Shown in pieces: positions 5,937 through 57,518 of a stretch of 64,000 bases of DNA. The DNA comes from Oceanobacillus senegalensis. Its GTDB lineage: Bacteria > Bacillota > Bacilli > Bacillales > Amphibacillaceae. The stretch covers positions 3,703,297-3,767,296 of the forward strand of contig NZ_LT839648.1 of assembly GCF_900176885.1 (NCBI RefSeq). The letters run 5' to 3'. The notes under the pieces are model-generated. The model was not told the DNA's origin. It was given only the letters and a program-made list of their open reading frames with translations, and did not search any database. Each line of letters opens with the position of its first letter. Position 1 is the first letter of the stretch. The position numbers and the translations under genes were made by a program.

Positions 5937-5990
5937 TTATCACAGGTTAAGGGGCAGTCATCCCCCCATTTACTGAAGATTCATTTTATA
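5937..5990 (+). repeat. Dispersed repeat, family B, copy 1 (short, centre deleted)
   Basis: It has both conserved ends, TTATCACAGGTTAAGGGGCA and CTGAAGATTCATTTTATA, but only about 15 bp between them, so the middle has been lost. Its right end overlaps the stop codon (5986-5988) of the M28 peptidase gene on the minus strand. Confidence 0.8.
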
Positions 5991-6966
5991 AATTCGGTTC
6001 TTCATAATCATAATCGACTGGTACTGGTTTAACGGCTGATTTTTCTAATGCAGGTGTATCTTTACGAGTAATTTGGAAAGTTGCTGCTCCAATAATATTA
6101 GCAACATCATGTAGCTTTTCCTTACTAATATAATCCATAATGTCATCTTCTGTGTGATACCAAGGTTCAAGTGGTGTATGAATAAACAATGCTGCCGGGA
6201 TTCCTAAATGATGAAAGGGAACATGATCACTCCTGCCCAGTTCACTATAAGGTACAATATCGCTTACACGAGAACCTGCTGCGGCACCTAAGTCAGTTAC
6301 CGTGTTAGTCTTCCCATCTGCTGTAAACATGATTAGATCTCCAGCATCCTTACTTCCTACCATATCTAATTGAAACATCGCTACGGTACTCTCTATTTCT
6401 TCTTTAGACATTGCCTCTGCATAACGTCTTGAGCCCCATAAACCATTTTCTTCTGCGCCAAATGCAATGAATTTAATCGTTGTGTCTGTTGGTGTATTTG
6501 CATATATTCTCGCTAATTCGAGCAATACTCCAGTCCCAGACGCATCATCGTTAGCCCCTGGCCCCCATGCAACAGAATCATGATGGGAACCGATAATAAT
6601 TTGCTGCTCTGTATCATGATTTTTCATTGGTTCCTTTAAAGCTTCTACATTATAAGATGTAATTTCTTCCCCACGTGAAGTGAAGGTAAATTCGTGGACA
6701 TTCACCTTATCATAACCATAGCTTTCAAATTGTTCTACAAGATAATCAATAGTCCGCGCTTCCCCTTCTGTACCAGCAGCACGAGAACCAATTTCTTCAG
6801 ATAAATATGAAACGTGTTCATAAATATTATCGACTTTAATCCGTTTTACTATTTTATTATCCAATGCTTGTTTTGCGTTTCCGTTAGGTGCTGCAAGGAC
6901 AGGAGTTGTTACTACCATTAGAAAACTTAAGAGGATTAGACCAACTTTTACTTGTAATTTTTTCAA
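5986..6966 (-). CDS. Secreted M28 family zinc aminopeptidase
   Basis: 326 aa from the proposed start. A Sec signal peptide MKKLQVKVGLILLSFLMVVT…LAA precedes one M28 catalytic domain. The dinuclear-zinc motif residues are visible: GSHHDSVAWGPGANDDASG (His, Asp), AFGAEENGLWGS (catalytic Glu and Glu ligand), QLDMVGS (Asp) and SDHVPFHHLGIP (His). It lacks the PA domain of longer relatives such as B. subtilis YwaD. The TTG at 6966 is preferred because AAGGGTTGTGA lies properly upstream and a signal peptide then begins directly; an in-frame ATG is at 6984. It should cleave N-terminal residues from extracellular peptides. It is divergent from the M14 gene at 7277. Confidence 0.88.
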   Translation of the reverse strand: MKKLQVKVGLILLSFLMVVTTPVLAAPNGNAKQALDNKIVKRIKVDNIYEHVSYLSEEIGSRAAGTEGEARTIDYLVEQFESYGYDKVNVHEFTFTSRGEEITSYNVEALKEPMKNHDTEQQIIIGSHHDSVAWGPGANDDASGTGVLLELARIYANTPTDTTIKFIAFGAEENGLWGSRRYAEAMSKEEIESTVAMFQLDMVGSKDAGDLIMFTADGKTNTVTDLGAAAGSRVSDIVPYSELGRSDHVPFHHLGIPAALFIHTPLEPWYHTEDDIMDYISKEKLHDVANIIGAATFQITRKDTPALEKSAVKPVPVDYDYEEPNL

Positions 6967-7276
6967 AAAATCACAACCCTTCATTTGTTTGATTAGATAT
7001 ATTTTCGAGGAAAAACTAGGTTCTCCTCTATTTTCCAGAAAAATGGGATAATAGTCCTGCGGTTCAATTCATGTTTATAGAGGGTACTAGATTTTTTCAT
7101 AAAAATTCTCTAACAAAGTACCTATAATTACTTGACTAATTTATGTAACCTAACAAAACTCCCGGTAGATATATGGATAGATAGACAATATGATTCATTT
7201 TTGGATTATCGGAAGGAGTTTTGGCCAAATGCCCCGAAACGTTCTATATAAAACAAATTAAAATGGAGGGGTATGA
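6967..7276. other. Intergenic region between divergent peptidase genes
   Basis: It should hold promoters for both the M28 and M14 genes. TATAAT occurs at about 7123-7128 on the plus strand, and GTACT/AGTAC segments flank an AT-rich stretch near 7080-7123. I see no convincing complete promoter and no gene here. Confidence 0.4.
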
Positions 7277-8329
7277 ATGAAAAAGTTGAACAAACAATTA
7301 CTTATCTTGTCTATTACTAGTGCGATTGTGCTTGCAGGAACTTCTCTTGTTTCTCCTGTTATCCATGCGGTTGGCAATGGGCCAAACTATAATGGGAATG
7401 AGACGGTAAACACTTCGATTCTTACTACTTATGAAGAAATGGCAAGTTATCTCCAAAAACAAGAAGCAAAACAAAAGCATATGGAATTAGAGGTTATTGG
7501 CCAATCCATAAAAGGGAAAGATTTATATTTAGTTAAATATATTTCCAATCCAGAAAACCCAACCATTCTTTTCTTAACCCAACAGCATGGAAATGAGCAA
7601 TTAACGACAGAAGGTGCGCTAGAATTCATTAAGCATCTAGGAACAGGTAAGACAAAAGGGGTATTGGATAAAGTGAATGTATTAGTTGTACCGATGTTAA
7701 ATCCTGATGGTGCAATGGGGGATGTTGACTTTTCATTAGATGATTATGTTGCGAAGGGAGACCGTCATTTAACAAGATATAATGCTGTTGGAGCGGATAT
7801 TAACCGTGATCATATTGCTAAAATTCATCCTGAGACACAAGCACTTCATCAAAATGTATTACAGAAATACGATATTGATTATATGATTGATTTACATCAT
7901 CAAGGAGCATATAGCGAGAGAGACGGTGAGCTTGTATCCGGCTCCATTCTTCACCCAACAACTCCGAATGTGGACCCAGATGTGCTTCATAAATCCAAAC
8001 AATTAGGAGCAGTAGTATTTGATGCAATTGATTCGACTGGTTGGGGCCACTTAGGAAAATATGTTGGCGGTACAGCAGAAACAATTGCTCGAAATGGGAT
8101 TGCTGTGGAGTACGATATATCTACACTCTTATTTGAAATGCGTGGTATGGCAGATCATTCCTATGAGCCTTATGTACTTGGACAAAAGAGTAATGGGTAT
8201 TTAATCAAACAAACGATTAACACGCTTGATGCAGCTGTACGTGCGATTGCAGATAGATCCATTAATGAAAAGGATGTATCCATCTGGGATTCACTACCTG
8301 AACAAGAATGGCGAACTGATTCTGAATAA
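7277..8329 (+). CDS. Secreted M14 family zinc carboxypeptidase
   Basis: 350 aa. A signal peptide covers about residues 1-31 (MKKLNKQLLILSITSAIVLA…HA). The M14 zinc motif HxxE is in TQQHGNEQLTTEGA, the substrate-binding region in NPDGAMGDVD and NAVGADINRDH, and the third zinc ligand in IDLHHQGAYSE. The C-terminal catalytic Glu is probably in GIAVEYDIS. The protein would trim C-terminal residues from extracellular peptides. The start has GGAGGGG upstream. Divergence from the M28 gene and nearness to the Opp locus suggest peptide scavenging. A strong terminator follows. Confidence 0.88.
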   Translation: MKKLNKQLLILSITSAIVLAGTSLVSPVIHAVGNGPNYNGNETVNTSILTTYEEMASYLQKQEAKQKHMELEVIGQSIKGKDLYLVKYISNPENPTILFLTQQHGNEQLTTEGALEFIKHLGTGKTKGVLDKVNVLVVPMLNPDGAMGDVDFSLDDYVAKGDRHLTRYNAVGADINRDHIAKIHPETQALHQNVLQKYDIDYMIDLHHQGAYSERDGELVSGSILHPTTPNVDPDVLHKSKQLGAVVFDAIDSTGWGHLGKYVGGTAETIARNGIAVEYDISTLLFEMRGMADHSYEPYVLGQKSNGYLIKQTINTLDAAVRAIADRSINEKDVSIWDSLPEQEWRTDSE

Positions 8330-8381
8330 GGAGGATTCTTCCATTTCTCTATTTTTCGTTATACTATAAAATGAATAAAAG

Positions 8382-8415
8382 AAAAGCCGAAATCGATACC
8401 GATTTCGGCTTTTTA
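8382..8415. terminator. Bidirectional terminator
   Basis: A 14-bp perfect stem (8382-8395 with 8400-8413) starts with an A-run and ends with a T-run. It therefore works for the M14 gene on the plus strand and for the ABC exporter operon on the minus strand. Confidence 0.85.
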
Positions 8416-8419
8416 TAGA

Positions 8420-9649: not shown

Positions 9650-10574
9650 GTTCAGCACCCTCCTCCACTAGTAAATTTTTATCTGTAGCTATATCAATGA
9701 AGATTTCATGGAGTGAAATCCGGTGTATCTTTAGCTCATGAATCGTAGTTTCATTTGGAAGTTGTTTTAACCATGTCGTTGGATTGACATCTTTATCTAA
9801 ATAGAGAATAGAGGTATCTCCATTTTGTTCAACCCTTTGAACGTTAGGAATGTTTTCCAAGGTGGAAGGGCGGTTTTTCCCGTGAATGGTACACTTGAAA
9901 TTCGCATATTCCGTCTTCACCTCATCTAAGGTTCCGTAAATTACCTTTTGTCCTCGTTGAATCATGAATACACGGTCACACATTTCTTCAACTAAATTCA
10001 TTTGATGGGAGGATAGGAGAATGGCAGTCCCATTATTTGCGAGATTTCTAATCTCCTCCTTGAATAATTCCTGACTTACCGGGTCAAGCCCAGAAAAAGG
10101 CTCATCTAAAATTAATAGTTCAGGTTCATGGATAATCGAGGAAATAAATTGTACTTTCTGTCCCATTCCTTTGGATAGTTCATCCATAGATACTTTTTCT
10201 TTCCCCTCTAAATCAAATTTTTTCAAGTATAAAAGAGCTCGTTCCTTCGCTTTATCGAGAGGATAATCTTTTAATTCGGCTAAATAAAGTAGAATATCCA
10301 TGACTTTTACATTCTTATATAGCCCACGTTCCTCTGGTAAGTACCCAATTTTATTTCGAGGAATGCCTTTTCCGTTATGTTGGTGAAAGGTGATGGATCC
10401 TTCATCAGGATACATAATTCCCATGATATTTCGGATGGTTGTTGATTTGCCGGCACCATTAGGACCAAGTATGGCCATAATTTCCCCTTTACGTACCTCG
10501 AAGGAAATACCTTTTAGTACATCTTTTTCTTTGAATGACTTCTTTAGTCCTTCAACCGTTAATAAAACTTCCAT
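9642..10574 (-). CDS. ABC transporter ATP-binding protein (NatA/YhaQ-like)
   Basis: 310 aa. Walker A GPNGAGKST is at about residues 36-44. A degenerate signature LSKGMGQKVQ and Walker B LLILDEPFSGLD follow, with the switch His in SSHQM. The region after residue 215 is a DUF4162-like C-terminal domain, as in YhaQ. The LSKGMGQK signature is characteristic of this exporter group. AAGGGAG lies upstream of the ATG. It forms a two-gene operon with the overlapping permease gene and is likely to drive efflux. Confidence 0.88.
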   Translation of the reverse strand: MEVLLTVEGLKKSFKEKDVLKGISFEVRKGEIMAILGPNGAGKSTTIRNIMGIMYPDEGSITFHQHNGKGIPRNKIGYLPEERGLYKNVKVMDILLYLAELKDYPLDKAKERALLYLKKFDLEGKEKVSMDELSKGMGQKVQFISSIIHEPELLILDEPFSGLDPVSQELFKEEIRNLANNGTAILLSSHQMNLVEEMCDRVFMIQRGQKVIYGTLDEVKTEYANFKCTIHGKNRPSTLENIPNVQRVEQNGDTSILYLDKDVNPTTWLKQLPNETTIHELKIHRISLHEIFIDIATDKNLLVEEGAEHA

Positions 10575-11609: not shown

Positions 11610-11622
11610 TTTCCATCATCAT

Positions 11623-11793
11623 GTATCACAGGTTAAGGGCAGTAATACCCAGCCTTAAAAATGGAAGAAAAACCAATTCCTCAAATACGTAGTTCTTAGG
11701 AGGCGTAGCAAAAGACGCTGCGACTTTAGCCTTTGTTCCTTTTTTTAGTGTGGGGGTGAAAGATACCCCCTACAGATAGAAAACTCACTTTAT
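11623..11793 (+). repeat. Dispersed repeat, family B, copy 2 (with insertion)
   Basis: It begins TATCACAGGTTAAGGGCAGT and ends GAAAACTCACTTTAT. Between the conserved segments there is about 65 bp not found in the other copies, including GGCGTAGCAAAAGACGCTGC, and this accounts for its 171-bp length. Confidence 0.7.
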
Positions 11794-11874
11794 ATCCTCC
11801 TCTAGTTGTAGATGTTTAAACAAGCCCAAAATGGTGAAAAATGGTAGTAATTAAAATGGGAGGGAAATGGATAG

Positions 11875-36389: not shown

Positions 36390-36990
36390 TGTGGATAAAA
36401 TTGTTTATAATGGGGGATATTTCCACAAGGATTTAGTGCTTAGGTAGATGTTTTATAGATTTAATGATCAGTAGATGTACGGTAAGTATTGATTTGGCGG
36501 TAATTAATATGTGGATAAGGGTTAGGATATATCCTTCTAGTTGCCCTCTTAAAATAATAGAATTAATAATATGATATGTTGATAATTAGATAGATATCCA
36601 CAATTAATTCACAACCTGTGTATTTCTCTGATTGATTCTAATCTTATTGCTTTTCAAACGATTATACGTTGTGTTAAAAATCAATATCTATTAATAGATT
36701 TATCGCAGGTTAAGGGGCAGTAATATCCTCCACCTTAAAAATGAGGATGGGGGATGAAAGAAACCCACCACTGATTGAAGATTCACTTTATATTATCAAG
36801 ATAGGTGATTTAAATTGAAGAAACAAACGAAAAAAGCAATCTATCAAATTATGCTTATCATTATTTTATTTTTTACAGTGTTTATCGTTATTTCTATCTT
36901 ATCATTCATAGATCATAGTCCAAGAGAGTCAACTTCAAATTATCCACAAATATCAGATGAGGTTCGGCAATATAGGCCACTTGTGGATAA
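36390..36990. promoter_or_regulatory. DnaA-box cluster
   Basis: Four exact TTATCCACA boxes are at 36390-36398 (minus), 36510-36518 (minus), 36940-36948 (plus) and 36982-36990 (minus). Single-mismatch boxes lie at 36577-36585, 36594-36602 and 36605-36613. The first part is a 490-bp intergenic, AT-rich region; the last two exact boxes are inside the lysozyme-like gene. No dnaA, dnaN or other replication gene is near, so it is more like the chromosomal DnaA-box clusters of B. subtilis than an origin. Confidence 0.55.
36700..36792 (+). repeat. Dispersed repeat, family B, copy 3
   Basis: It starts TTATCGCAGGTTAAGGGGCA and ends GATTGAAGATTCACTTTATA, probably close to the family consensus. It lies between the DnaA-box region and the lysozyme-like gene; its right end is 23 bp before that start codon. 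Confidence 0.85.
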
Positions 36991-43281: not shown

Positions 43282-43337
43282 CTGGTTAAAAGAATTGAGT
43301 TTGACTGATCGCCAATCCATTTTAAAAGTATGTTTTC

Positions 43338-43422
43338 TAAAGTGAATCTTCAATCTGGGGGCTTTTTGCATTCCCCACTTAACATAACTCATTTTTGAGG
43401 GGTATTACTGACCTGCAATAAA
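43338..43422 (-). repeat. Dispersed repeat, family B, copy 4 (inverted)
   Basis: Read on the minus strand it goes from TTATTGCAGGTCAGTAATACC through CAAAAATGAG to TTGAAGATTCACTTT. It lies between the MFS and TetR genes. Confidence 0.78.
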
Positions 43423-43460
43423 ACAGAAAATGGTTGTAAAAATAGGAGGGAATTTTCAAG

Positions 43461-44015
43461 ATGACTCAATCCAAGCAAGATCCACGAATTCTTCGTACCC
43501 GCAAGTTAATTATGGATTCTTTTATTGAACTATCCGGTAAAAAGGAATTTAAGGATATTACCGTTAAGGATATTACAACAGAGGCTATGATAAACCGGGC
43601 TACATTCTATTATCATTTCGCGGATATATATGATCTATTGGAAAAAGTATTATCTGAAGTATTATTGATTAATTTGAACGGTCATAACTATCAGGAAAGT
43701 AGCCTTAATGAGGAATCCATTATTCGTATTTTTACGGCCATTACAAACTTTCAAGAGTCCCTATCCAATCGCTGTCATAGAGGATACGAAGACACGATTG
43801 CTCGTATTATAAGGGAACAGCTTGAAATTATTTTTTATAAAATGTTGTTAAAACAAGGTAAAACGGATGAAGATGAAGCCTTAAAAGTGACAGCTGTCAT
43901 ACTAAGTTGGGGAATTTATGGGGCCTCTGTGGAATGGAGAAGAAATAGAAAAGAGATAGAGCCGAAAGAATTTATCCAATCAGCTATTCCTTATATATTT
44001 TCTGGGATTCAATAA
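43461..44015 (+). CDS. TetR/AcrR family transcriptional regulator
   Basis: 184 aa. The N-terminal helix-turn-helix spans about residues 10-57 (RTRKLIMDSFIELSGKK, then TTEAMINRATFYYHF), as in TetR regulators. The C-terminal ligand-binding part resembles the TetR_C_33/YsiA-like group. RBS AGGAGGG. It is probably the repressor of the preceding efflux pump. The stop codon TAA coincides with the end of a family B repeat. Confidence 0.85.
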   Translation: MTQSKQDPRILRTRKLIMDSFIELSGKKEFKDITVKDITTEAMINRATFYYHFADIYDLLEKVLSEVLLINLNGHNYQESSLNEESIIRIFTAITNFQESLSNRCHRGYEDTIARIIREQLEIIFYKMLLKQGKTDEDEALKVTAVILSWGIYGASVEWRRNRKEIEPKEFIQSAIPYIFSGIQ

Positions 44016-44104
44016 AGTGAATCTCAATCAGTGGGGGTTTTCTTTCATCCCCCACTTAAAATGATTCGTTTCTTCCATTTTTGAGGTGGATTACTTACGA
44101 TAAA
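44013..44104 (-). repeat. Dispersed repeat, family B, copy 5 (inverted)
   Basis: It begins on the plus strand TAAAGTGAATCTCAATCAGT and ends TTACTTACGATAAA, with GGGGGTTTTC and CCCCCACTT in between. The first three bases are the stop codon of the TetR gene. The two GGGGG/CCCCC blocks can form a hairpin and may terminate the TetR transcript. The rest of 44105-44334 contains no gene. Confidence 0.82.
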
Positions 44105-44334
44105 TGTCGAAAAGTAATTCAAGGCATCGATTAAAAATCCTTATCAGGAAATTAGAATTTTAAAACTATCGTAATAGAATAGTATGTTACTAGTACTAAT
44201 GTATCATTTTTATTACAGATGTTACAAGATTGGTAGGTTAAGTAATGCTTGTAATGGATTCTTAACTAGCCTGTTACTGTTTTCCCTAGAATCCTATGAT
44301 AGTATTATCCATAGAATTCGAAGGAGGAATTGAT

Positions 44335-45081
44335 ATGAGAAAGCTAGTAACAGTGTTAGCCACAGGTCTAATTCTAGCATTAACATCTGTAACTACTGTT
44401 TCCGCAGAGGAATATGAAATTAAAAAAGGGGATACCCTTTGGGATATTGCAAATGAACATAATACAACTGTTGATAGTTTAATAGATATAAATGATTTAA
44501 AAACAACTTTGATCCATCCGAAACAAATCCTATTATTACATGAAGAATATACGGTTCAAAAAGGGGATACTTTAATTAGTATTGCCGATAAATACGATGT
44601 ATCAGTAGAGGATTTAAAGAAATGGAATAATTTAGATTCTGATATCATTGTAATTGGACAAGACTTAGAAATTAAAGGTGTAACGGAAGAGGATTCAGAG
44701 GAGAAAGACCAATTCGCATCAGTCCAAACAAAAGAAGAAGATAAAGCAGAAAAAGCAGAAAAAGCATCAAAAGATGAGCCAAGCGGAAAGAAAATGACTG
44801 TAACAGCAACGGCATACACAGCTAACTGTGAGGGTTGTACAGGAATTACTTATACAGGTGTAGATTTAAACAAAAATCCAGATGCAAAAGTTATTGCAGT
44901 GGATCCGGATGTTATCCCATTAGGTTCTGAAGTATATGTGGAAGGCTATGGATACGCAACAGCAGCCGATATTGGAAGTGCCATTCAGGGTTCAAGAATC
45001 GATTTATTTATTCCTGAGTTAAGTGATGCAAAGGAATATGGGGTAAAAGATGTAGAAATAACTATTGTGAATGAAGCATAG
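44335..45081 (+). CDS. Secreted LysM–3D domain cell-wall protein (YocH-like)
   Basis: 248 aa from ATG 44335, seven bases after AAGGAGG. A signal peptide ends at about residue 24 (TVSAEE). Two LysM repeats follow (EYEIKKGDTLWDIANEHN and EYTVQKGDTLISIADKYD), then a Lys/Glu-rich linker and a 3D domain with TATAYTANCEG, AVDPDVIPLGSEVYVEGYG and the aspartates in AADIG and RIDLF. This is the architecture of B. subtilis YocH, a peptidoglycan-cutting autolysin under WalR. I could find only imperfect WalR half-sites upstream. Confidence 0.9.
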   Translation: MRKLVTVLATGLILALTSVTTVSAEEYEIKKGDTLWDIANEHNTTVDSLIDINDLKTTLIHPKQILLLHEEYTVQKGDTLISIADKYDVSVEDLKKWNNLDSDIIVIGQDLEIKGVTEEDSEEKDQFASVQTKEEDKAEKAEKASKDEPSGKKMTVTATAYTANCEGCTGITYTGVDLNKNPDAKVIAVDPDVIPLGSEVYVEGYGYATAADIGSAIQGSRIDLFIPELSDAKEYGVKDVEITIVNEA

Positions 45082-45085
45082 AAAC

Positions 45086-45129
45086 AAAGAAGGAATACAG
45101 CCACTTATAGGCTTGTATTCCTTCTTTTT
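45086..45129 (+). terminator. Terminator after the LysM–3D gene
   Basis: AAAGAAGGAATAC-AGCC pairs with GGCT-GTATTCCTTCTTT, followed by TTG. Confidence 0.8.
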
Positions 45130-45266
45130 GTATAGTAGTTATCCGTAAAGTAATATTTCCATTTCAAAGGTGTAGAATAGCGGTCCCTAAAAAGCTCGAT
45201 ACATATAACAATATCAGTGGGAAAAGGATTTTTCACTGATGTAGATCCCTTTATCTTCTATCATGT

Positions 45267-45398
45267 TTAGAAGCTAATTTCAGTGGAAATATTATTATCT
45301 TCAATAATCTTTACTGGATCATCTGTTGTTTTTACTACTCCAACAGTACCAACTGTTAGGATAAGCATAACAAATAATGCAAATAAAACTTTCTTCAT
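45267..45398 (-). CDS. Small exported peptide, function unknown
   Basis: 43 aa, not previously flagged by length filters. The start ATG (45398) has GGAGGGC eight bases upstream. The peptide begins MKKVLFALFVMLILTVGTVG, a clear signal or anchor segment, followed by VVKTTDDPVKII and ending NNISTEISF. Size and layout resemble Phr-type pro-peptides, but there is no adjacent Rap gene and no recognisable Phr pentapeptide. It could also be a small membrane protein. The coding reading is supported by start context and composition, not by homology. Confidence 0.5.
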   Translation of the reverse strand: MKKVLFALFVMLILTVGTVGVVKTTDDPVKIIEDNNISTEISF

Positions 45399-45581
45399 TC
45401 TTGATGCCCTCCATCAAAAGTTACTAACAACAGTATAATAAAAATAACGAGAAATCACCACATGGAAATCCTTCAAAATGTGAACGATTTTAGATAGATA
45501 TTCTTAGAGGACAAACGATAGATAGAGAGGAACATACAACATTCCATTTAGTGAACACCAAATCTCTCTTTGTAATCCAAA

Positions 45582-45612
45582 TAAAAAGCACCCCCATTCT
45601 ACTAGGGGTGCA
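45582..45612 (-). terminator. Terminator of the ABC-F gene
   Basis: On the minus strand GCACCCCT pairs with GGGGGTGC (one T·G) and is followed by TTTTTAT. Confidence 0.75.
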
Positions 45613-45624
45613 ATAGATAAAATC

Positions 45625-47253
<1,629 letters not shown>

Positions 47254-47502
47254 TTATTTCCTCCAATTTTTAGAAATATACTATTCGCCTTCCAATTTGA
47301 GCGAAAGTGTAGTTATTTTTATACTTAAAAAAATTTTAGAATTTTATTTTTGGCGATTCCCTTTATCTAAATTTTAAATGTAAAAATAAGTAATCAAAGC
47401 TAGCTTACGTTATTTATAAGAATACGTCAATAAAGAAACATCATATATTATATAACAGGAATTTCCAAACGAGGATGTTGAAAGTAAATGATTAATAGGA
47501 GC

Positions 47503-47610
47503 ATAAAGGGAATCTTCATTCAGCGGTTTTTTTTAGCCTCCAACTAAAATGATCCGTTTTATCTCGATTTTTGGGATGGTGGTATGGCTGCCCTCTTAAC
47601 CTGCGATAAA
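47503..47610 (-). repeat. Dispersed repeat, family B, copy 6 (inverted)
   Basis: Plus strand ATAAAGGGAATCTTCATTCA at the left and CTCTTAACCTGCGATAAA at the right. It is the reverse complement of copy 3 with moderate divergence inside. The rest of 47248-47679 has no gene. Confidence 0.78.
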
Positions 47611-47679
47611 AGACTTATAGAGATGTGGGGCTAAATTCAGCGAGGTTTTATGTCCCTCGCTGAATGGATTATGATTATA

Positions 47680-48327
47680 TTAATCTAGCTTTAATGTATC
47701 GATACCTAATCGTTTATAGGGGATTTGGATACGGAATGCTAGATGGTTAGCCTCGAGGTCAATATGCTCCACGGAAACTTTAAAATTGCTTTTCATTTCC
47801 ATTTCTGTAACAGCCACATAGATTTCTTCCTCTTTTGGATTAATGGTCACCCATTCTGGCATATCTAAGTATTTATCCATGTATTCCATGATTTTTTGAT
47901 TTGGCAATTCTAATAAACCAATGGAAATGGAACGTTGTTTTAAAATAATATCACCGTTGTCCAATACCAGTGGTTCCAAATGTACTGATAGGGGAACCGT
48001 AGTAGAAAAGGCTGGTAATTCCCCCATCAAATGAACATCGTCCTCTAAAGATATGGAGTAATGATGTTTCGACCCTTGTAGCATTTCTTGAAGGTAGGCG
48101 TTTACGAGTTCATTTAAATTTTGTTTCGTTGTTCGAACTACAAATTCAGAGCTTCCTTCTGTGTTTGGTTTTTGATTTGGGATTATTTCCCGTTCTGAAA
48201 CAGGCCAAAACAGAAGGGTAGCAAGAACGATGATTACTATTATATTGAAACCTAGTAAACTATAAAATAAGCCTCTCCATTTATTTTTCCTCTTTCTTTT
48301 TTCTTCGTGAGCGGTCACTTCCCTCAA
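47680..48327 (-). CDS. ypmS: YpmS family membrane-anchored protein (DUF2140)
   Basis: 215 aa. A short basic N-terminus and one membrane helix (about 22-44) precede an extracytoplasmic domain of DUF2140 type with NELVNAYLQEML and ISLEDDVHLMGELPAF. Function unknown. The gene overlaps the end of ypmR by 4 bp and starts at TTG 48327; GTG 48318 is an alternative. The same gene pair exists in B. subtilis, so joint action with the YpmR hydrolase is likely. Confidence 0.82.
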   Translation of the reverse strand: MREVTAHEEKRKRKNKWRGLFYSLLGFNIIVIIVLATLLFWPVSEREIIPNQKPNTEGSSEFVVRTTKQNLNELVNAYLQEMLQGSKHHYSISLEDDVHLMGELPAFSTTVPLSVHLEPLVLDNGDIILKQRSISIGLLELPNQKIMEYMDKYLDMPEWVTINPKEEEIYVAVTEMEMKSNFKVSVEHIDLEANHLAFRIQIPYKRLGIDTLKLD

Positions 48328-49241
48328 CTCTCTTCATTTGTAATATAGTTCAGTACACGCTCTGCAATCAGGTGATAGCCTTGGTAATTAGGATGAAAGT
48401 TATCCTCGGCAAATAAGTTTATATCCTTATCTTGAAATAAATCCAGTGTAGGAATAAATTCTACATTATCATTTTCATCTGCAATGGCTTTCGTTGTACC
48501 GTTGTACGCATTTACAATCATATTTAATTCCTTAATATCCTGAAAGTATTTCTCGAATGGATTGTAAAAACCAATGAGATAGATAGTTGCATCTGGGTTG
48601 TGTCCTTTTATTTTCCTCATAATCTGTTTTAGGTTATTTTCATAATGTACTCTCTGTTCGATAAAGTCATTAAGCGTTAAATTCATGAAGTTTTCTTTTG
48701 CGACTTGCATAATATCATTTGCACCAATAGTAATTAAAATAATATCCGCTTTAGAAATAGCGGAAGAAACCTCATCTAGGTTTAGGCGTTCTAGCAGTTG
48801 CTCTGAACGCGATCCTCGTTTACCGAAATTTTCAAAATGAGCAACCTTCTTATCTTCTGTATTAATCGTTCTTTCTAGGATACCAACATATCCACCTTGA
48901 TTGGTAGTGTCTCCAACCCCTTGGGTGAGGGAGTCACCAACAGCAACAATATGAATAGGATAATTGTTCTGGAAAAATGCCATCGTTCCTTGAACTGTTT
49001 CAGCAATTCTCTCAGGGAGTTCTTTAGGGTCGCTGGGCTGAACTTCCTTCTCAGTAGGTTCTTTTGTTTCTTTGCCGTTCTCACTTACTTCTATTTGTTG
49101 TAATTCTTCTAGTTTCGTTTCCTTTAATAAAGCTGGGCGGGATTCCATTTTATCTGGGCCTTCCATTGGAAAAATTATAGAAATCATTGCAATTCCCAAT
49201 AAAATAGTGCCAAATATAGTATAGAAATATGTTTTTTTCAT
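48324..49241 (-). CDS. ypmR: SGNH/GDSL-type lipase/esterase (YpmR-like)
   Basis: 305 aa from ATG 49241 (AGGTGTGA upstream; GTG 49250 is in frame but worse). One N-terminal membrane anchor (about 6-25) and an acidic linker lead to an SGNH hydrolase domain. The blocks are AVGDSLTQGVG (catalytic Ser), NFGKRGSRSEQL, ITIGANDI (Asn) and EDNFHPNYQGYHLIAE (Asp and His). It should be an outward-facing esterase; substrate unknown. Co-transcribed with ypmS by a 4-bp overlap. Confidence 0.86.
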   Translation of the reverse strand: MKKTYFYTIFGTILLGIAMISIIFPMEGPDKMESRPALLKETKLEELQQIEVSENGKETKEPTEKEVQPSDPKELPERIAETVQGTMAFFQNNYPIHIVAVGDSLTQGVGDTTNQGGYVGILERTINTEDKKVAHFENFGKRGSRSEQLLERLNLDEVSSAISKADIILITIGANDIMQVAKENFMNLTLNDFIEQRVHYENNLKQIMRKIKGHNPDATIYLIGFYNPFEKYFQDIKELNMIVNAYNGTTKAIADENDNVEFIPTLDLFQDKDINLFAEDNFHPNYQGYHLIAERVLNYITNEES

Positions 49242-49480
49242 GTGTATCACACCTATACTGGTTTACTATATATTATGGCTAGGTGAGTCAAATATCCACG
49301 TACAGAGATAGGTCTTCTTTATTAGTATATGACAAACTTTCCCTCATATTAAATATACCCTAATATTATAATCATTAAAATAAAAAGTTAAACGTTGTTG
49401 TAGGATTGTAAACAGGTTGTCATATAAGGTAGGAGTTACGCTTTTAAGTTGATGAGACGTAGGCTGTCATTTGAGCAAAT

Positions 49481-49718
49481 ATACCGCTGCGGAAATACAC
49501 TACGCTTTCCGTGGGCGCTGCTGAGCCTACTTCGAGCTATCGCTCTTCGTAGTCTCGCCGAGGCTTGTCCTATGGGAATAGCACGTGTCTAAAGACTACG
49601 GAGCGGTGGTCTTCCAATACGGAGGCTGAAGCCGTGCCCTAAGGTCCGCGACTGCTCGCAGTGGAAATCAACGTGCACCAACAAACATTATTGTTCTACA
49701 GGTTATTGCGCATTCTAT
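49481..49718 (+). repeat. MITE-like GC-richer repeat, family C, longest copy
   Basis: It begins ATACCGCTGCGGAAATACAC and ends GGTTATTGCGCATTCTAT, the exact inverted form of the ATAGAATGCGCAATAACC left end seen at 3535. The centre holds GCTTTCCGTGGGCGCTGCTG, GGAGGCTGAAGCCGTGCCCT and CGCGACTGCTCGCAGTGG, allowing long hairpins. The left tip is missing or altered. GC content is well above its surroundings. No gene is in 49242-49777. Confidence 0.72.
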
Positions 49719-49736
49719 ATGACAAAAGTAGATAAT

Positions 49737-49770
49737 AAAAAGGATGTAAGCTTATGCTCACATCCTTTTT
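49737..49770 (-). terminator. Terminator of metY
   Basis: AAAAAGGATGT pairs with ACATCCTTTTT, with one mismatch pair next to the GC/GC loop base. The minus-strand T-run closes the metY transcript. Confidence 0.78.
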
Positions 49771-49777
49771 ATTGTGT

Positions 49778-51493
49778 TTAAACGAAAGCAGCTTCTGTTG
49801 TTTTGTTCCCTCTTAATCGATCTGCTTCTTCAAATGGGTTTTTACCTGTGATAACAGTGATTCCTGCCGCTTTTGCGTTTTCGACTGTTGAATCGGCAGA
49901 ATCTGCATTTTCTACCCAAAGGATTTTTCCTTGTTTATTGATTACCTGTTCAATAGTAGATGTTGGTAATGCTTCTCCATTGATCCAAACGGCATCAATA
50001 TTACCAGGGATATCTGTTAGTTCATTATATTTTTGACCTTCACCGAACGGTACAAGTTCAAATCCTAAAGCTTCTAATTTCTTCGCTGATTCACAAGTAG
50101 AACCAGTGCTTGCGATTACTTTCTTTCTAACGCCCCCAGCACGGTCAAATGGGGAAGAAAGAAGCCATTTAATTGCGTCTTCTTCCGTTTCTTTTATAAC
50201 AGGTGCTTCTCCTGTAGCTTTAGCAATGGCTTGATCTAAATCAGCTAGAATATCATCTGTTGATTCAAGACCGATAGAAAGTCGAACAAGCTCTTCTGTT
50301 ACACCACTCTTCTTCAAGTCCTCTTCACCTAATTGTTGGTGTGTAGTAGAAGCAGGGTGGATGATTAAGGATTTCGCATCCCCAACATTTGCCACATGAG
50401 ACCATAGTGTAATGTTATCGATAAGTTTCCTTCCTGCATCACGTCCACCTTTAATTCCAAAGGTAATAATAGATCCGTATCCTTCTTTAAAGTATTTTTT
50501 AGCAACTTCATGGGAAGGATGTTCTTCTAATCCTGGGAAGTTCACCCATTCAACAGCAGGATGTTCTTTCAGAAAGTTTACTACTTTAACAGCATTTTCA
50601 TTATGTCTTGTAATACGCAAGTGCAATGTTTCTAATCCTTGTAATAATAGGAAAGCATTTTGTGGACTCAAGCATGCACCGATGTCACGTAGCAATTGGA
50701 CACGTAATTTTGTAATAAATGCTGCTGGACCAAGGTCAACATATTTTAGACCGGCATAGCTTTCATCAGGTTCGGTAAATCCCGGGAATCTTCCATTACC
50801 CCAATTGAAGCGCCCGCCGTCGACAACAAGACCACCAATTGTTGTTCCATGTCCACCAATCCATTTCGTAGCAGAATGAACAACAATATCTGCACCCCAT
50901 GTAAGTGGTTTTGTCACATATGGTGTTGCAAATGTATTGTCGATAATAAGTGGAATTCCGTTTTCGTGTGCCACTTCAGCAACAGCTTCAACATCAAATA
51001 CATTTAAGCTTGGGTTTGTAATAATTTCACCAAAAATTGCCTTTGTTTTATCGGTAATAGCTTTACTGATTTCCTCTGGTTTTGTACCATCAACAAATTT
51101 AACGGTAATGCCGTATTTTGGAAGCGTGTTAGCAAAAAGGTTATAGGTTCCACCGTAAAGATTACTATCTGCAATAATTTCGTCTCCTGTACCTGCTAGG
51201 TTTAGGATGGAAAGTGTAATAGCTGCCATTCCAGATGAGGTAGCAAGTGCACCAACACCATCTTCTAATGTAGCAATTCGTTGTTCCAGTGCATCTAACG
51301 TTGGATTCATTATACGAGAGTAGATGTTTCCTGGTTCAGCAAGCCCGAAAAGGTTTTGTGCATGTTCTGTATCACGGAAAACATAAGAAGTAGTTTGATA
51401 GATTGGAACCGCACGTGAACCTGTTGTGGGGTCAACTTCTTGACCAGCGTGTAGTAATTGTGTTTCTGGATTTTGCAAATGGAAATCAGACAT
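49778..51493 (-). CDS. metY: O-acetylhomoserine sulfhydrylase with extra C-terminal domain
   Basis: 571 aa. Residues 1-430 form a Cys/Met-metabolism PLP enzyme: SSGMAAITL, the region [21 protein letters not shown], and Lys210 in [10 protein letters not shown] that binds PLP. It uses sulfide and O-acetylhomoserine to form homocysteine. Residues from about 435 to 571 form an additional α/β domain with [20 protein letters not shown] and [12 protein letters not shown] resembling a CoA-binding/Rossmann module; usual MetY is about 430 aa. A SAM-I riboswitch and a strong promoter precede it. RBS AAGGAGG. Confidence 0.9.
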
Positions 51494-51544
51494 GAAAAAT
51501 TCCTCCTTAAATTTTAAATAGATATGATTATGTATCTGGAAGCG

Positions 51545-51716
51545 GAGATAAGAAAAGCCCTCTTCATAAGAGAAGAGGGCTTTGATATGTAGCCGGACCT
51601 CCTCTTATCTTCCAAATCATAAGATCTGTAGGATTTAGCACCGGAAAAAGCAAACACTGCCTTCAGGTTGCCGGGTTTCACAGGGCCTATTCCCTCCACC
51701 GCTCTTGATAAGAGAT
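51545..51716 (-). promoter_or_regulatory. SAM-I riboswitch (S-box) with terminator before metY
   Basis: On the minus strand the P1 strand CTCTTATCAAGAGC (51715-51702) starts the aptamer. It continues with GGTGGAGGGAATAGGCCCTG, GAAACCCGGCAACC, GGTGCTAAATCC and closes with GATAAGAGGAGG (near 51605). A strong terminator, AAGCCCTCTTC/GAAGAGGGCTT plus TTTCTTATCT, is at 51583-51545. When SAM is bound the terminator forms, so metY is off if methionine is plentiful. Confidence 0.95.
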
Positions 51717-51731
51717 TATTAAGTTAAACTC

Positions 51732-51760
51732 AGTATAGTCGTCAGAATTTTATTTGTCAA
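51732..51760 (-). promoter_or_regulatory. Promoter of the metY leader
   Basis: Perfect TTGACA (51760-51755), 17-bp spacer, TATACT (51737-51732). Start of transcription is expected near 51724, just before the aptamer. Confidence 0.85.
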
Positions 51761-51892
51761 CTAATTTTATCAAATAATTCCTCAACTTTTTCTAAAGGAA
51801 ACATTAGCACCTTCATATAAGTCAAGTATGTCATGGAATAAAATACCAGAAAATATTACCTAATGGGAAATTTGCGTATATTCATTATGTTA

Positions 51893-51921
51893 TTGACGAA
51901 ATTTGTAGAATTATTTAGTAT
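51893..51921 (+). promoter_or_regulatory. Likely promoter of the AGCS symporter gene
   Basis: TTGACG (51893-51898), 17 bp, TAGTAT (51916-51921). This predicts an untranslated leader of about 170 nt with a small inverted repeat GTGTAA/TTACAC (51973-51998). I see no known riboswitch there. Confidence 0.45.
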
Positions 51922-52096
51922 TATGTTGTACAGTGATCTCTTTCAGATTGTTTTAATAAAAGATAGCAATAGGTGTAAACTAATGAAAGGCGTTACACAA
52001 TTATCTTTTAACCTGTACATTTTGATGAAGTTGTTTTTTAAAAGCGTTTTCATCTATTTAATCGTATCTTATTAAAAGACTTGGGGGATAGGAACA

Positions 52097-53550: not shown

Positions 53551-53595
53551 AACGAACCTATTCGCGTATAAAGGTGCGAATGGGTTCGTTTTTTA
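53551..53595 (+). terminator. Terminator after the symporter gene
   Basis: ACGAACCTATTCGC pairs with GCGAATGGGTTCGT (one mismatch), followed by TTTTTAA. Confidence 0.85.
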
Positions 53596-53800
53596 ATAGG
53601 AATAAAGAAGGAAGTTTTGATTTTAATATTGTGATGATCCACTCTTTTCTATTAGCTAGATGTCTAACTGTACGTTTGACATATGGATTCATGAAAGTAA
53701 ATGCAATGAAATGTGATGTAGTAGATTCCTAAGGTATTCTGAAAATGCCATCAATGTTGCCCAATCAGTTACATATACTAGTTATGGGTAGAAGACTCAT

Positions 53801-53892
53801 TTTATTGCAGGTCTAGGGACACACCCCGAAAATGGAGGATAAACAAATCATTTTAAGTGGGGATGGGGCCCTGCTGATTGAACATTCACTTG
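53801..53892 (+). repeat. Dispersed repeat, family B, copy 7
   Basis: TTTATTGCAGGTCTAGGGAC at the left and GATTGAACATTCACTTGA at the right, with CATTTTAAGTGGGGATGGGG inside. The right end is just before the ribosome binding site of the methionine gamma-lyase gene, so the element forms part of its 5′ leader. Confidence 0.8.
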
Positions 53893-53910
53893 ATGGGGAG
53901 GAATCATGAT

Positions 53911-55095: not shown

Positions 55096-55167
55096 TCTCT
55101 TTCGTTAAGCTTGTCTGGGGAACCGGTATAGAAAAACAGAGAAAAGGGAATAGACTAGGAGGATAGT

Positions 55168-55272
55168 TTTATCTTAGTTTAAGGGACCGTCATACCTCAC
55201 CTCAAAAAAGAGGAAAAACAAACCATTTTAGGTGGGAATGAGAGTCCCCCCACTATTGAAGATTTACCTTAT
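55168..55272 (+). repeat. Dispersed repeat, family B, copy 8
   Basis: TTTATCTTAGTTTAAGGGAC at the left, ATTGAAGATTTACCTTA at the right, with GGAAAAACAAACCATTTTAG and GTGGGAATGA inside. More diverged than copies 3 and 9. Nothing else is seen in 55096-55429. Confidence 0.75.
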
Positions 55273-55429
55273 TTGATAATATACCGCTTTTTGTTAAAGG
55301 ATATACAGGAGAAAGTCCAAGGAATAATACATTCAAATGTTGTTGCTAACAGGAATTTTTTTCTTGTGCTATATTAAGGATAGTATTATTTTTAATGTGT
55401 TTTTCTAGTGATCGGAAAGGAGTAAAACA

Positions 55430-56878
55430 ATGGGAATACTGACATATTTATTAGGATTTGTTCTTGTGACAAATATTATCTTAGGTATTTCTATTGTGTT
55501 TCTCGAGAGGAAAAATGCTACGGCAACCTGGGCTTGGCTAATGGTTCTGTTATTTATACCTATTCTGGGATTTGCTCTTTATTTAATTTTTGGCAGGCCT
55601 ATTAATAAGAAGCGAATATTTACTTGGGATAAAAAAAGTCGTCAAGAAGTAACAAGGCAAGTGCAAATGCAGATGAAGGCCTTAAATGAGGACGAATTTA
55701 ATTTTCGTGATCGGGGCCAGCCGATGGATGATTATGAGACATTAATCTATTTACATTTGCGGAATGATGAGGCGATTTTTACACAAAATAACCATATAGA
55801 TATTTTTACAGATGGTCGGGAAAAATTTGACGCATTGATTCGTGATATGGAACAGGCAAAAAACCATATTCATCTGCTATATTATATTCTCAAGCATGAT
55901 GAGTTGGGCCAGCGTATTGCTGATGTTCTAAGAAGAAAATCCAAACAAGGTGTAGAGGTTCGCGTTCTATTTGATGATATGGGCTCACGTACCTTAAAAA
56001 AGCGTTACATTAAAAGGTTACGTAATGCTGGAGTTGAAATAGAGGCTTTCTTTCCATCTAGTATTTTAAATATTAACTTAGAAATCAATTATAGAAATCA
56101 CCGGAAATTAGCTATCATTGATGGAGAAATAGGTTATATTGGTGGATTTAATATTGGAGACGAATACCTAGGAAAAAATAAGAAGTTCGGTTACTGGCGA
56201 GATACACATCTCCGTGTTACAGGACATGCCGTTCATAATATGCAAACTAGATTTATATTAGATTGGAACCAAGCTTCTAGGAATGATATTTTATATGAGG
56301 AACGTCTTTATAATGCCAAGCCAAGTGGAAATGTGGGCATGCAGATTGTATCGAGCGGACCGGATTCAAAGTGGGAACAGATTAAATATGGCTATATCAA
56401 AATGATTATGTCAGCGAAGGAGTACATCTATATTCAAACCCCTTATTTTATCCCGGATGAAAGCCTTCTGGATGCATTACGGATAGCTGTTTTCTCAGGG
56501 GTTAAGGTAAAGTTGATGATTCCCAACAAGCCAGATCATCCATTTGTCTATTGGGCAACATTATCTTATTGTGGTGATTTACTTGCTGCTGGAGCGGAAG
56601 TGTATGTTTATCAAAATGGTTTCTTGCATGCAAAAACCATTGTAGTGGATGGTGAAATTGCATCTGTAGGAACAGCAAATATTGATGTGCGAAGTTTTCG
56701 TTTGAATTTTGAAGTGAATGCCTTTTTATACAATGAGAAAATATCGATGGATTTGGTGCAGGCCTTTAATGAGGATGTGAAGCTATCGACGCAAATGACG
56801 AAGAAATTATATGACAAACGCACAGTCGGGATTCGTTTTAAAGAGTCTATATCCCGACTGATTTCACCGGTACTATGA
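55430..56878 (+). CDS. cls: Cardiolipin synthase
   Basis: 482 aa. Two N-terminal membrane helices (about 3-24 and 33-54) precede two phospholipase D domains. HKD motif 1 is HRKLAIIDGEIGYIGGFNIG (His about 223), motif 2 HAKTIVVDGEIASVGTANID (His about 399). It joins two phosphatidylglycerol molecules to cardiolipin and glycerol at the membrane. Length agrees with B. subtilis ClsA. RBS AAAGGAG. The ykhA-like gene starts 19 nt after its stop. Confidence 0.94.
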   Translation: MGILTYLLGFVLVTNIILGISIVFLERKNATATWAWLMVLLFIPILGFALYLIFGRPINKKRIFTWDKKSRQEVTRQVQMQMKALNEDEFNFRDRGQPMDDYETLIYLHLRNDEAIFTQNNHIDIFTDGREKFDALIRDMEQAKNHIHLLYYILKHDELGQRIADVLRRKSKQGVEVRVLFDDMGSRTLKKRYIKRLRNAGVEIEAFFPSSILNINLEINYRNHRKLAIIDGEIGYIGGFNIGDEYLGKNKKFGYWRDTHLRVTGHAVHNMQTRFILDWNQASRNDILYEERLYNAKPSGNVGMQIVSSGPDSKWEQIKYGYIKMIMSAKEYIYIQTPYFIPDESLLDALRIAVFSGVKVKLMIPNKPDHPFVYWATLSYCGDLLAAGAEVYVYQNGFLHAKTIVVDGEIASVGTANIDVRSFRLNFEVNAFLYNEKISMDLVQAFNEDVKLSTQMTKKLYDKRTVGIRFKESISRLISPVL

Positions 56879-56896
56879 CACAGGAGGATATGTAAT

Positions 56897-57397
56897 ATGG
56901 AAGCAAAGCCTTGTTCAGAATCAAGAGCAGTAAAGACAACACTTGTTCTACCACCAGATACGAATAATCATGGCACCCTCTTCGGGGGGAGGCTTCTTGC
57001 AGATATTGATGAAATTGCATCCATTGCAGCAATTAGGCATGCGAGAGAGTTAGTTGTTACAGCTTCAACAGATTCCGTTGACTTTTTATCTCCCGTAAAA
57101 TTGGGGCAATCGATATGTATTGAAGCGTTCGTTACATGGACCCATAACACTTCCATGGAGGTATTCGTAAAGGTTGTTACAGAAGATTTGATAACAGGGG
57201 AGGAGCAAGTGTGTAATACCGCATTTCTAACCTTTGTCGCTGTAGATAACGATGGCAACCCAATCCCTGTTCCTCCCGTATATCCAGAAACAGAGCATGA
57301 AAAAAGGTTATACGAAAGTGGGCCAAAGCGATCACAAGAGCGAAAAGATAGAAGAAAAAGGTCAAAGGAATTTGCAAAAGAATTTGGAATGAATTAG
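56897..57397 (+). CDS. ykhA: Acyl-CoA thioesterase (hotdog fold, YkhA-like)
   Basis: 166 aa. Hotdog domain with NNHGTLFGGRLLADIDEIAS (the Asn-His-x-x-x-Gly motif, residues about 21-40, with the catalytic Asp) and STDSVDFLSPVKLGQ. The C-terminus is charged (KRSQERKDRRKRSKEF). It hydrolyses acyl-CoA thioesters. RBS AGGAGGAT. Coupling with cls suggests a lipid-related transcript, ended by a terminator at 57402-57440. Confidence 0.9.
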   Translation: MEAKPCSESRAVKTTLVLPPDTNNHGTLFGGRLLADIDEIASIAAIRHARELVVTASTDSVDFLSPVKLGQSICIEAFVTWTHNTSMEVFVKVVTEDLITGEEQVCNTAFLTFVAVDNDGNPIPVPPVYPETEHEKRLYESGPKRSQERKDRRKRSKEFAKEFGMN

Positions 57398-57401
57398 AAG
57401 G

Positions 57402-57440
57402 AAAAAACTGTCTATGTGAGGTGGGCAGTTTTTTCCTTTT
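57402..57440 (+). terminator. Terminator after the thioesterase gene
   Basis: AAAAAACTGTC pairs with GGCAGTTTTTT (one T·G), with an 11-nt loop, followed by CCTTTTTA. Confidence 0.75.
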
Positions 57441-57518
57441 TATCACAGGTGAAGGGGCCGTCATCCCCCCAGCATTTTAGGTGGGGGATGATGCCCCTCA
57501 TTAATGGAAGATTCAACG
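57440..57518 (+). repeat. Dispersed repeat, family B, copy 9
   Basis: TTATCACAGGTGAAGGGGCC at the left and GGAAGATTCAACGAAG at the right. The ATCCCCCCAGC/GTGGGGGATGA blocks in between form a strong hairpin. It directly follows the terminator of the preceding gene. Confidence 0.78.

What the first reader, a model, noticed from the sequence alone, without database searches (positions are those of the whole stretch)
5937..57518. Family B: nine dispersed ~50-170 bp intergenic repeats with conserved ends
Copies at 5937-5990, 11623-11793, 36700-36792, 43338-43422(-), 44013-44104(-), 47503-47610(-), 53801-53892, 55168-55272 and 57440-57518 share a left end near TTATCGCAGGTTAAGGGGCA and a right end near GATTGAAGATTCACTTTAT. 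The centre is variable but can form hairpins of C-runs with G-runs. They lie only between genes, in both orientations, about one per 7 kb. They could be miniature mobile elements, REP-like sequences or structured RNA ends. I have seen similar words in related genomes but do not know a described function.
Basis: partly seen in the sequence, partly recalled or inferred. Interest (0 to 1): 0.7.

Follow-up and report, generated by a model that had tools for sequence, protein, structure and literature searches.

The report
Replication-oriented mobile repeats in Bacillales
Short folded DNA repeats scattered between this bacterium's genes look like a widespread transposon family without genes of its own, whose copies point along DNA replication whatever the neighbouring genes do, and no enzyme that moves them was found.

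Summary
A covariance model recovers all nine copies and a tenth (45127-45257). They belong to a family with about 119 copies scored in this genome, matches in 28 of 28 sampled genomes of the genus and in 97 of 299 sampled genomes (56 of 116 genera) of the order. The full unit is about 155 bp: TTTAT, hairpin P1 enclosing P2, a conserved linker, hairpin P3, and an end reading TTCACTTTAT. The three hairpins covary strongly (22 of 28 pairs with two-sided changes). Window copies are mostly internally deleted versions. Some longer versions carry Rfam's Bacillaceae-1 RNA as an inner module. Orientation follows replication (89 of 112 here; 42 of 44 listed copies in G202 of another genus), with no detectable effect of gene direction. 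This fits a non-autonomous single-stranded-DNA element inserting at TTTAT in the lagging-strand template, as IS200/IS605 elements do. But this genome gave no Y1 transposase or TnpB match, and no transposase bracketed by these ends was found in the loci read. The described B. cereus repeats bcr1-bcr3 share the TTTAT ends; their sequence could not be compared. New variant of a known kind.

The parts
5937..5990 (+). Minimal copy (53 bp): left end, short GGGG...CCCC hairpin, right end
   Evidence: R1 match 5934-5992, E 2.9e-4
11623..11793 (+). Long copy (171 bp) with a degenerate, reversed Bacillaceae-1-like inner module (TTAGGAGGCGTAGCAAAAGACGCTGCGACTTTAGCCTTTGTTCC)
   Evidence: R1 match 11620-11796, E 1.2e-6; module listed; this copy itself has no Rfam match at the gathering score, clearer homologues do
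36700..36792 (+). Intermediate copy (92 bp), TTTAT at both ends
   Evidence: R1 E 1.3e-7
43338..43422 (-). Intermediate copy (85 bp)
   Evidence: R1 match 43334-43424, E 3.5e-4
44013..44104 (-). Intermediate copy (about 92 bp)
   Evidence: R1 match 44009-44106, E 1.7e-6
45127..45257 (+).
   Evidence: R1 E 6e-4; sequence
47503..47610 (-). Intermediate copy (107 bp)
   Evidence: R1 match 47500-47612, E 3.6e-6
53801..53892 (+). Intermediate copy (93 bp)
   Evidence: R1 match 53799-53897, E 0.0024
55168..55272 (+). Intermediate copy (104 bp); the orthologous spacer has no copy in 14 of 17 congeners read and a different decayed copy in 3
   Evidence: R1 E 1.7e-8
57440..57518 (+). Short copy with a damaged right end
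   Evidence: R1 match 57437-57524, E 0.0027

Best explanation
The repeats are non-autonomous, single-stranded-DNA transposable elements. The strand written left-to-right folds into hairpins near both ends (P1 enclosing P2 at the left, P3 at the right). An enzyme acting in trans would cut at TTTAT, excise the folded strand and join it 3' of a TTTAT exposed on the lagging-strand template of a replication fork, leaving TTTAT at both ends. Once inserted, copies lose their interior by slippage between CCCCCAC or GGGGGAT repeats at the stem feet, giving the 50-170 bp versions in the window. Shown: family, ends, covarying hairpins, replication-linked orientation independent of gene direction, uneven abundance. 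Inferred: the ssDNA intermediate, the cutting site, the trans-acting enzyme, the deletion route, and TTAA/CTAAC before the P1 and P3 feet as guide-like sequences.
For: Dispersed family: 129 matches at E<=1 here, 150 of 2120 candidates scored; 28 of 28 sampled genomes of the genus with 1 to 104 matches; 97 of 299 genomes of the order. TTTAT within the search zone at the 5' end in 80, the 3' end in 79 and both in 58 of 112 copies. Tandem copies share a single TTTAT (L121, L290, L118). Hairpins: 95.5% of 1643 cells paired, 22 of 28 pairs with two-sided changes, 0 of 500 shuffles as good on any of five measures, slid controls lower on all; 93.6% and 21 of 28 on a structure-blind MAFFT realignment. 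Orientation: 89 of 112 along replication, including 11 of 14 between genes that both point against replication (binomial p 0.057 alone), 18 of 21 between convergent and 24 of 28 between divergent genes; likelihood-ratio p 3e-10 for replication given genes, 0.41 for genes given replication. G202, another genus: 42 of 44 listed copies. G112, another genus, short forms: 38 of 49 scored. Lagging-strand targeting, subterminal hairpins and foot guides are published hallmarks of IS200/IS605 (PMC6006769, abstract and passages). Orthologous spacer without a copy in 14 of 17 congeners.
Against: No Y1 transposase and no PF07282 TnpB match in this genome. G023 has 14 matches but no Y1 match. None of 30 Y1 loci read, of 64 Y1 matches, is bracketed by the ends. 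No fetched left-right pair encloses a transposase. No base-level empty site was obtained, because congeners are mostly 66-82% identical in the tested region. Within 0.3 Mb of the origin only 11 of 20 copies follow replication. The 225-bp form in G112 does not follow replication (8 of 18). In the congener G019 skew is noisy and 16 of 22 listed copies follow the broad arms (counted by eye). IS605 elements of Halanaerobium show no strand preference in print (PMC7290912, passages).
Confidence: 0.6

Rival explanations
1. Insertion is random in orientation, but copies are kept or lost, or selected for polarity, according to replication direction: structured G-run/C-run repeats may be deleted faster on one strand, or the repeat may serve as a polar sequence read along the chromosome arm (as KOPS-like motifs do; recalled).
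For: In this genome the bias is weak within 0.3 Mb of the origin (11 of 20) and strong beyond 1.1 Mb (57 of 64), as for polar chromosome-arm motifs. Copies shortened from within are common.
Against: G202 shows two exceptions among 44 listed copies, neither within 0.6 Mb of the skew switch taken as the origin, and its orientation switch points agree with the GC-skew switches. Match number from 1 to 104 within one genus is odd for an essential polar signal.
Confidence: 0.17
2. The unit is a retroelement: a folded RNA copied into TTTAT sites at replication forks by a reverse transcriptase acting in trans, such as a group II intron protein.
For: Compact conserved fold; orientation linked to replication. 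That group II intron retrotransposition can also use fork strands is recalled and was not tested.
Against: G-T to A-C in stems is 61 to 45, or 58 to 36 on the fitted alignment, whereas a selected RNA stem would be expected (recalled) to show a clear G-U excess; no control RNA family was measured. No reverse transcriptase was searched for.
Confidence: 0.08
3. The copies are sites of a site-specific recombinase (cassette- or integron-like), with tandem arrays formed by recombination at TTTAT, as suggested in print for the B. cereus repeats.
For: Tandem arrays with one shared TTTAT; [quoted passage not shown]
Against: The tandem copies read (L121, L290, L118) abut directly, with no gene between them. 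Conserved hairpins at both ends and dispersal to unrelated spacers fit transposition better (inference). No recombinase was searched for.
Confidence: 0.08
4. The repeats are chromosomally kept regulatory or processing RNA elements rather than mobile DNA.
For: Covarying structure; 84 of 165 and 62 of 155 B. cereus intergenic repeats were found within transcripts in two strains (PMC3446304, passage); the inner module matches an Rfam sRNA family.
Against: Orientation shows no dependence on gene direction (likelihood-ratio p 0.41); the same spacer in 14 of 17 congeners lacks a copy; G-U excess is slight.
Confidence: 0.07

Closest known systems
Bacillus cereus repeats bcr1-bcr3 (group A)
   Same: Short, mostly intergenic repeats associated with TTTAT, tens of bcr1 copies per strain in variable number, described as MITE-like (PMC6542083 and PMC3446304, passages). 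A bcr1 length of about 155 bp and TTTAT at each end are recalled from Okstad 2004, which is not held.
   Different: Described as specific to the B. cereus group (title of Okstad 2004, seen in reference lists), while this family is in 97 of 299 sampled genomes of the order. No bcr1 sequence was available; four queries from the present family matched no record labelled as B. cereus group among the plasmids. Whether bcr1 is a member is open.
PATEs: ends-only derivatives of IS200/IS605 elements
   Same: Subterminal hairpins, no inverted terminal repeats, fixed short flank, lagging-strand orientation, no coding capacity.
   Different: No parent IS with these ends was found; a conserved linker and an enclosed inner hairpin; TTTAT at both ends.
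REP/REPIN repeats with TnpA-REP (RAYT), and the orphan CGTC repeats
   Same: Intergenic, high copy number, hairpins. CGTC repeats too are reported without a dedicated transposase (PMC3733652, passages), a precedent for an orphan family.
   Different: No GT[AG]G or CGTC foot; no Y1 match in this genome; a three-helix unit rather than a single short palindrome.
Bacillaceae-1 RNA (RF01690, Weinberg 2010)
   Same: The inner module of some long copies is this family, above the gathering score in four loci of this genome (L088, L090, L180, L183).
   Different: Of 14 matches above the gathering score, ten are reversed relative to the element (centre) and four run with it (L012, L050, L067, L042; P3 loop). 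In these loci it sits inside a repeat rather than standing alone.

Membership tests
Non-autonomous IS200/IS605 (PATE) | Hairpins near both ends acting on one strand | tested here: met
   P1 and P3 supported by covariation; that one strand is the acting one is inferred from orientation bias
Non-autonomous IS200/IS605 (PATE) | No inverted terminal repeats | tested here: met
   Left TTTATCCCGC/TTTATCGCAG and right GAAGTTTCACTTTAT are not inverted repeats (read)
Non-autonomous IS200/IS605 (PATE) | Fixed short target next to the left end | tested here: met
   TTTAT in 80 of 112, TTAT in 90 of 112 copies
Non-autonomous IS200/IS605 (PATE) | Insertion into the lagging-strand template | tested here: met
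   89 of 112 here, 42 of 44 listed in G202, 38 of 49 for G112 short forms; weaker in G019 (16 of 22) and not met for the G112 225-bp form, 8 of 18
Non-autonomous IS200/IS605 (PATE) | Guide tetranucleotide 5' of each hairpin foot | tested here: inconclusive
   TTAA before P1 and CTAAC before P3 are conserved, but pairing with TTTAT is not demonstrated
Non-autonomous IS200/IS605 (PATE) | A parent IS or Y1 transposase with the same ends | tested here: not met
   0 Y1 matches in own genome and in G023; 0 of 30 Y1 loci read (of 64 matches) bracketed by the ends. Therefore not filed as a member
bcr1 family | TTTAT flank at both ends, unit near 155 bp | tested here: met
   tandem offset 155 bp (G024 rows). 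The bcr1 length is recalled
bcr1 family | Sequence homology to the bcr1 consensus | not testable with these tools
   Consensus papers not held; indirect searches of plasmids gave no B. cereus-group record
bcr1 family | Restricted to the B. cereus group | tested here: not met
   Family in 56 of 116 sampled genera
REP/REPIN | GT[AG]G foot and associated TnpA-REP | tested here: not met
   Feet are TTAA and CTAAC; no Y1 match
MITE (inverted-repeat type) | Terminal inverted repeats | tested here: not met
   Ends differ
Bacillaceae-1 RNA | Match to RF01690 above gathering score | tested here: met
   For the inner module of some long copies only; the window itself has no match at the gathering threshold

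The most novel reading that the evidence does not exclude
An order-wide family of gene-less single-strand transposons moves without any Y1 transposase, using an unrecognised enzyme or the replication machinery itself, and can amplify as units as small as 52 bp; Rfam's Bacillaceae-1 'RNA' is one of its cargo modules rather than a free-standing RNA gene.
Probability: 0.2. Interest if true: 0.85.

Novelty: new variant of a known kind. Interest (0 to 1): 0.58.

Why it matters
Repeats of this type have been described as a speciality of the B. cereus group. Here a covarying family with the same TTTAT flank is found in about a third of the sampled genomes of the order, and in every sampled genome of this genus. 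The replication-following orientation, separated from gene direction, turns the question of how such orphan repeats move into a testable one: single-strand transposition at forks against selective retention. It also offers a new reading of Bacillaceae-1 RNA as repeat cargo, and a concrete search target: the enzyme that recognises these ends.

Tried and rejected
IS605-type TnpB as carrier: 12 TnpB loci from G371 and G028 were fetched. Three (L067, L069, L070) had a right-end word, with up to 3 mismatches, somewhere in the locus. A script given 11 of the 12 (not L070) read a C-terminus in 7; one of these (L061) ends with its contig and one (L067) has a stop inside; none of the six 3' flanks shown carries the family's right end directly behind the gene. 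Only L070 has a decayed TnpB tail directly against a right end.

Y1 transposases as carriers: 30 of 64 Y1 matches were fetched as loci and scanned with R1; 3 loci had a match (L236, L251, L242), none bracketing the gene.

A long autonomous copy: 198 left-right pairs in 356 sequences held then (1.33 Mb; overlapping loci count more than once). Two span more than 330 bp. The 1.5-kb one (L323) encloses what I read as a desaturase gene (no family search); its left end is a weak match (E 0.0035), its right end a clear one (E 1.5e-6).

My first reading that congeners lack the family (exact-word search) was wrong: with R1 all 28 genomes of the genus sample, this one included, have matches.

52-bp copies as proof of a 52-bp mobile unit: three 52-bp copies share GAGATTC, but the same variant occurs in a full-length copy (2352731) and in the window copy at 44013, so repeated deletion from longer copies is not excluded.

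Plasmid pairs for an empty site: both Peribacillus asahii plasmids carry the same copy, and the Pseudalkalibacillus plasmid has no comparable relative. Phage records: no match.

A tRNA control for G-U excess was started; only the first lines of its output were seen and no tRNA was counted, so there is no such control.

Rows dropped: of 129 own-genome matches the last 10 (E above 0.3) were left out; of the remaining 119, seven had no fetched flanks; of the 112, two lacked a neighbour on one side and are not in the logistic model. For G202 44 of 128, for G112 77 of 107 and for G019 22 of 49 matches were listed by the tool. In some searches I had left out three listed G112 short-form rows by oversight (36 of 46); restores them (38 of 49; 10 of 59 short-form rows near the skew switches left out).
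Full report
OBSERVATION. The nine copies are at the stated coordinates with the stated ends. A covariance model, R1, was built from 14 full-length copies, none from the window. It recovers all nine at E 1.7e-8 to 0.0027, plus a tenth decayed copy at 45127-45257. The left-end word with one mismatch occurs 58 times in the genome against 0 for the reversed word. A further six weak R1 rows in the window (E 0.11-0.9) are not counted.

ANATOMY. Across the order the unit reads roughly TTTATCCCGC-n-TTAAcGGGCAGTAA ... GTAAAnGnCCGATTnGTTCAACTAACnATCAGTGGGGG ... CCCCCACTGATnGAAGTTTCACTTTAT. Three helices: P1 (GGGCAGT with ACTGCCC) encloses P2 (CCCCCACTT with AAGTGGGGG); P3 (ATCAGTGGGGG with CCCCCACTGAT) stands near the right end. 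On 61 copies from other genomes, 95.5% of 1643 cells pair and 22 of 28 pairs show two-sided changes, against 0 of 500 shuffles and lower values for slid structures. That alignment was fitted to the structure; a structure-blind MAFFT realignment gives 93.6% and 21 of 28. In the stems G-T and A-C mismatches number 61 and 45 on the blind alignment and 58 and 36 on the fitted one. That slight excess is weak evidence for a DNA-level fold; no control RNA family was measured.

INTERNAL DELETION. Copies in this genome range from 51 to 242 bp (112 copies). Nine are 51-53 bp, where the interior between two CCCCCAC repeats seems gone. The common form of about 85-115 bp seems to lack the stretch between two GGGGGAT repeats. 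A GGGCCTTGTGTCATACCCTTGTGGTATAAACT segment was matched in 13 of 112 and a Bacillaceae-1-like motif in 14 of 112; 9 of the 12 copies of 202 bp or more have one or both. The deletion route is inferred from the sequences. R1 is mostly matched over its whole length, so end-truncated copies may be missed.

BACILLACEAE-1. Rfam's Bacillaceae-1 RNA (RF01690) scores above the gathering threshold inside elements in L046, L044, L054 and L012; L038 is below it. In one search it does so in 8 of the 20 loci scanned: L088, L180, L183 and L090 of this genome, and L067, L042, L050 and L069. Compared with the element strands, ten of these 14 matches are reversed relative to the element and lie in its centre; four (L012, L050 and one each in L067 and L042) run with it, in the P3 loop. 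L067 and L042 hold one of each. The loci were chosen for carrying the element, so this does not show how many Bacillaceae-1 copies genome-wide lie inside elements. The original paper tables it as RNA 'Y', cis-regulatory 'n', Bacillaceae (PMC2864571, passages). The listings showed no paper linking it to a repeat; the three papers were not opened.

DISTRIBUTION. About 119 copies in this genome at E<0.2 (E-values are rough, and only 150 of 2120 candidates were scored, so probably a lower bound; only six of the ten window copies appear in that list). Within the genus sample, 28 of 28 genomes, this one included, have matches at E<=0.001, from 1 to 104 (104 candidates scored each). In the order, 97 of 299 sampled genomes and 56 of 116 genera at E<=1e-4 (9 candidates scored each). 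Named carriers of full or partial copies include Bacillus dakarensis and Bacillaceae bacterium Marseille-Q3522 and a Pseudalkalibacillus hwajinpoensis plasmid. Plasmid searches found 4, 5, 3 and 2 of 72,556 records, the phage searches none.

ORTHOLOGOUS SITE. The spacer holding window copy 55168-55272 was fetched from 20 congeners; 17 could be read with both flanking genes. Fourteen show no copy (no R1 match at E<=1; one of them has masked bases in the spacer). Three (L277, L278, L279) have a decayed right end elsewhere in the spacer, next to the downstream promoter-like sequence (L277 and L278 are R1 matches at E 0.78 and 0.14, L279 is my reading of the sequence). The congeners are too diverged for a base-level empty site.

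REPLICATION. GC skew sampled along the chromosome places the origin near 3.6 Mb and the terminus near 1.4 Mb (20 stretches of 6 kb plus the window). Of 119 copies 94 point along replication; of the 112 with flanks, 89 do. Split by neighbours: both genes along replication, 35 of 47 elements along; both genes against, 11 of 14 still along replication (p 0.057 on its own); convergent 18 of 21; divergent 24 of 28. In a logistic model on 110 copies, replication given genes has p 3e-10 and genes given replication p 0.41. In G202, of another family, 42 of 44 listed copies follow the skew, switching at the same places. In G112 the short forms follow in 38 of 49 scored copies; the 225-bp form does not (8 of 18). 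In the congener G019 the skew is noisy; taking 0.24-3.46 Mb as plus and 3.69-0.01 Mb as minus, 16 of 22 listed copies follow (counted by eye). Also against the simple picture, only 11 of 20 copies within 0.3 Mb of the origin of this genome follow replication; the window is in that zone, with 7 of its 10 copies along replication. The left-to-right strand is thus mostly the lagging-strand template, the strand used by IS200/IS605 transposases (PMC6006769, abstract and passages). In Halanaerobium, however, IS605 elements showed no such preference (PMC7290912, passages).

MOVER. This genome has no PF01797 match and no PF07282 match. Y1 proteins are matched in 14 of 15 element-bearing genomes tested but not in G023, and none of the 30 Y1 loci read is bracketed by the ends. 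No fetched left-right pair encloses a transposase. The copies may therefore be relics whose enzyme was lost here, or use an enzyme not looked for (no tyrosine or serine recombinase, IS91-type or reverse transcriptase search was made).

COMPARISON. The nearest described repeats are bcr1-bcr3 of the B. cereus group, called MITE-like and TTTAT-associated (PMC6542083 and PMC3446304, passages). The primary papers are not held, no bcr1 sequence was available, and four queries matched no plasmid record labelled as B. cereus group, so identity with bcr1 is open. It works like an IS200/IS605 ends-only element, but the parent-transposase test was not met, so it is not filed there. REP and inverted-repeat MITE criteria are not met.

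VERDICT. Real, and most likely mobile single-strand DNA. The family-wide structure and the gene-independent replication polarity are the new points. Mechanism and mover remain inferred.

Noticed in passing
window 51602-51714 (-): SAM riboswitch (RF00162, 83.2 bits, E 3.8e-18), lying just upstream of the minus-strand ORF 49778-51493; ordinary.
   Followed up: no
   Followed up: partly
L067 69-211 and L042 1271-1418: Two Bacillaceae-1 modules in opposite orientation inside one element, one of them in the P3 loop, as if the module itself had inserted twice.
   Followed up: partly
L058 (Klebsiella grimontii plasmid pNY3A) 2971-3067: A Bacillales-type copy (R1 E 1.1e-9) on a plasmid recorded from Klebsiella, next to a CPBP protease gene; transfer or a mixed assembly.
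   Followed up: no
   Followed up: no
window about 44000-52000: GC skew near zero (0.004, -0.022) and mostly minus-strand genes within an otherwise plus-strand arm, with the three minus-oriented copies in or beside it; looks like an old local inversion.
   Followed up: partly
L277-L279, spacer upstream of the second gene: In three congeners a decayed right end (such as TTTTATGCTATGATAA) overlaps the downstream -10-like sequence, so an insertion may have become part of a promoter.
   Followed up: no
G112 225-bp form, rows: A longer form in another genus does not follow replication direction (8 of 18); perhaps a different element or reverse-strand matches, which R1 can give on good copies.
   Followed up: partly
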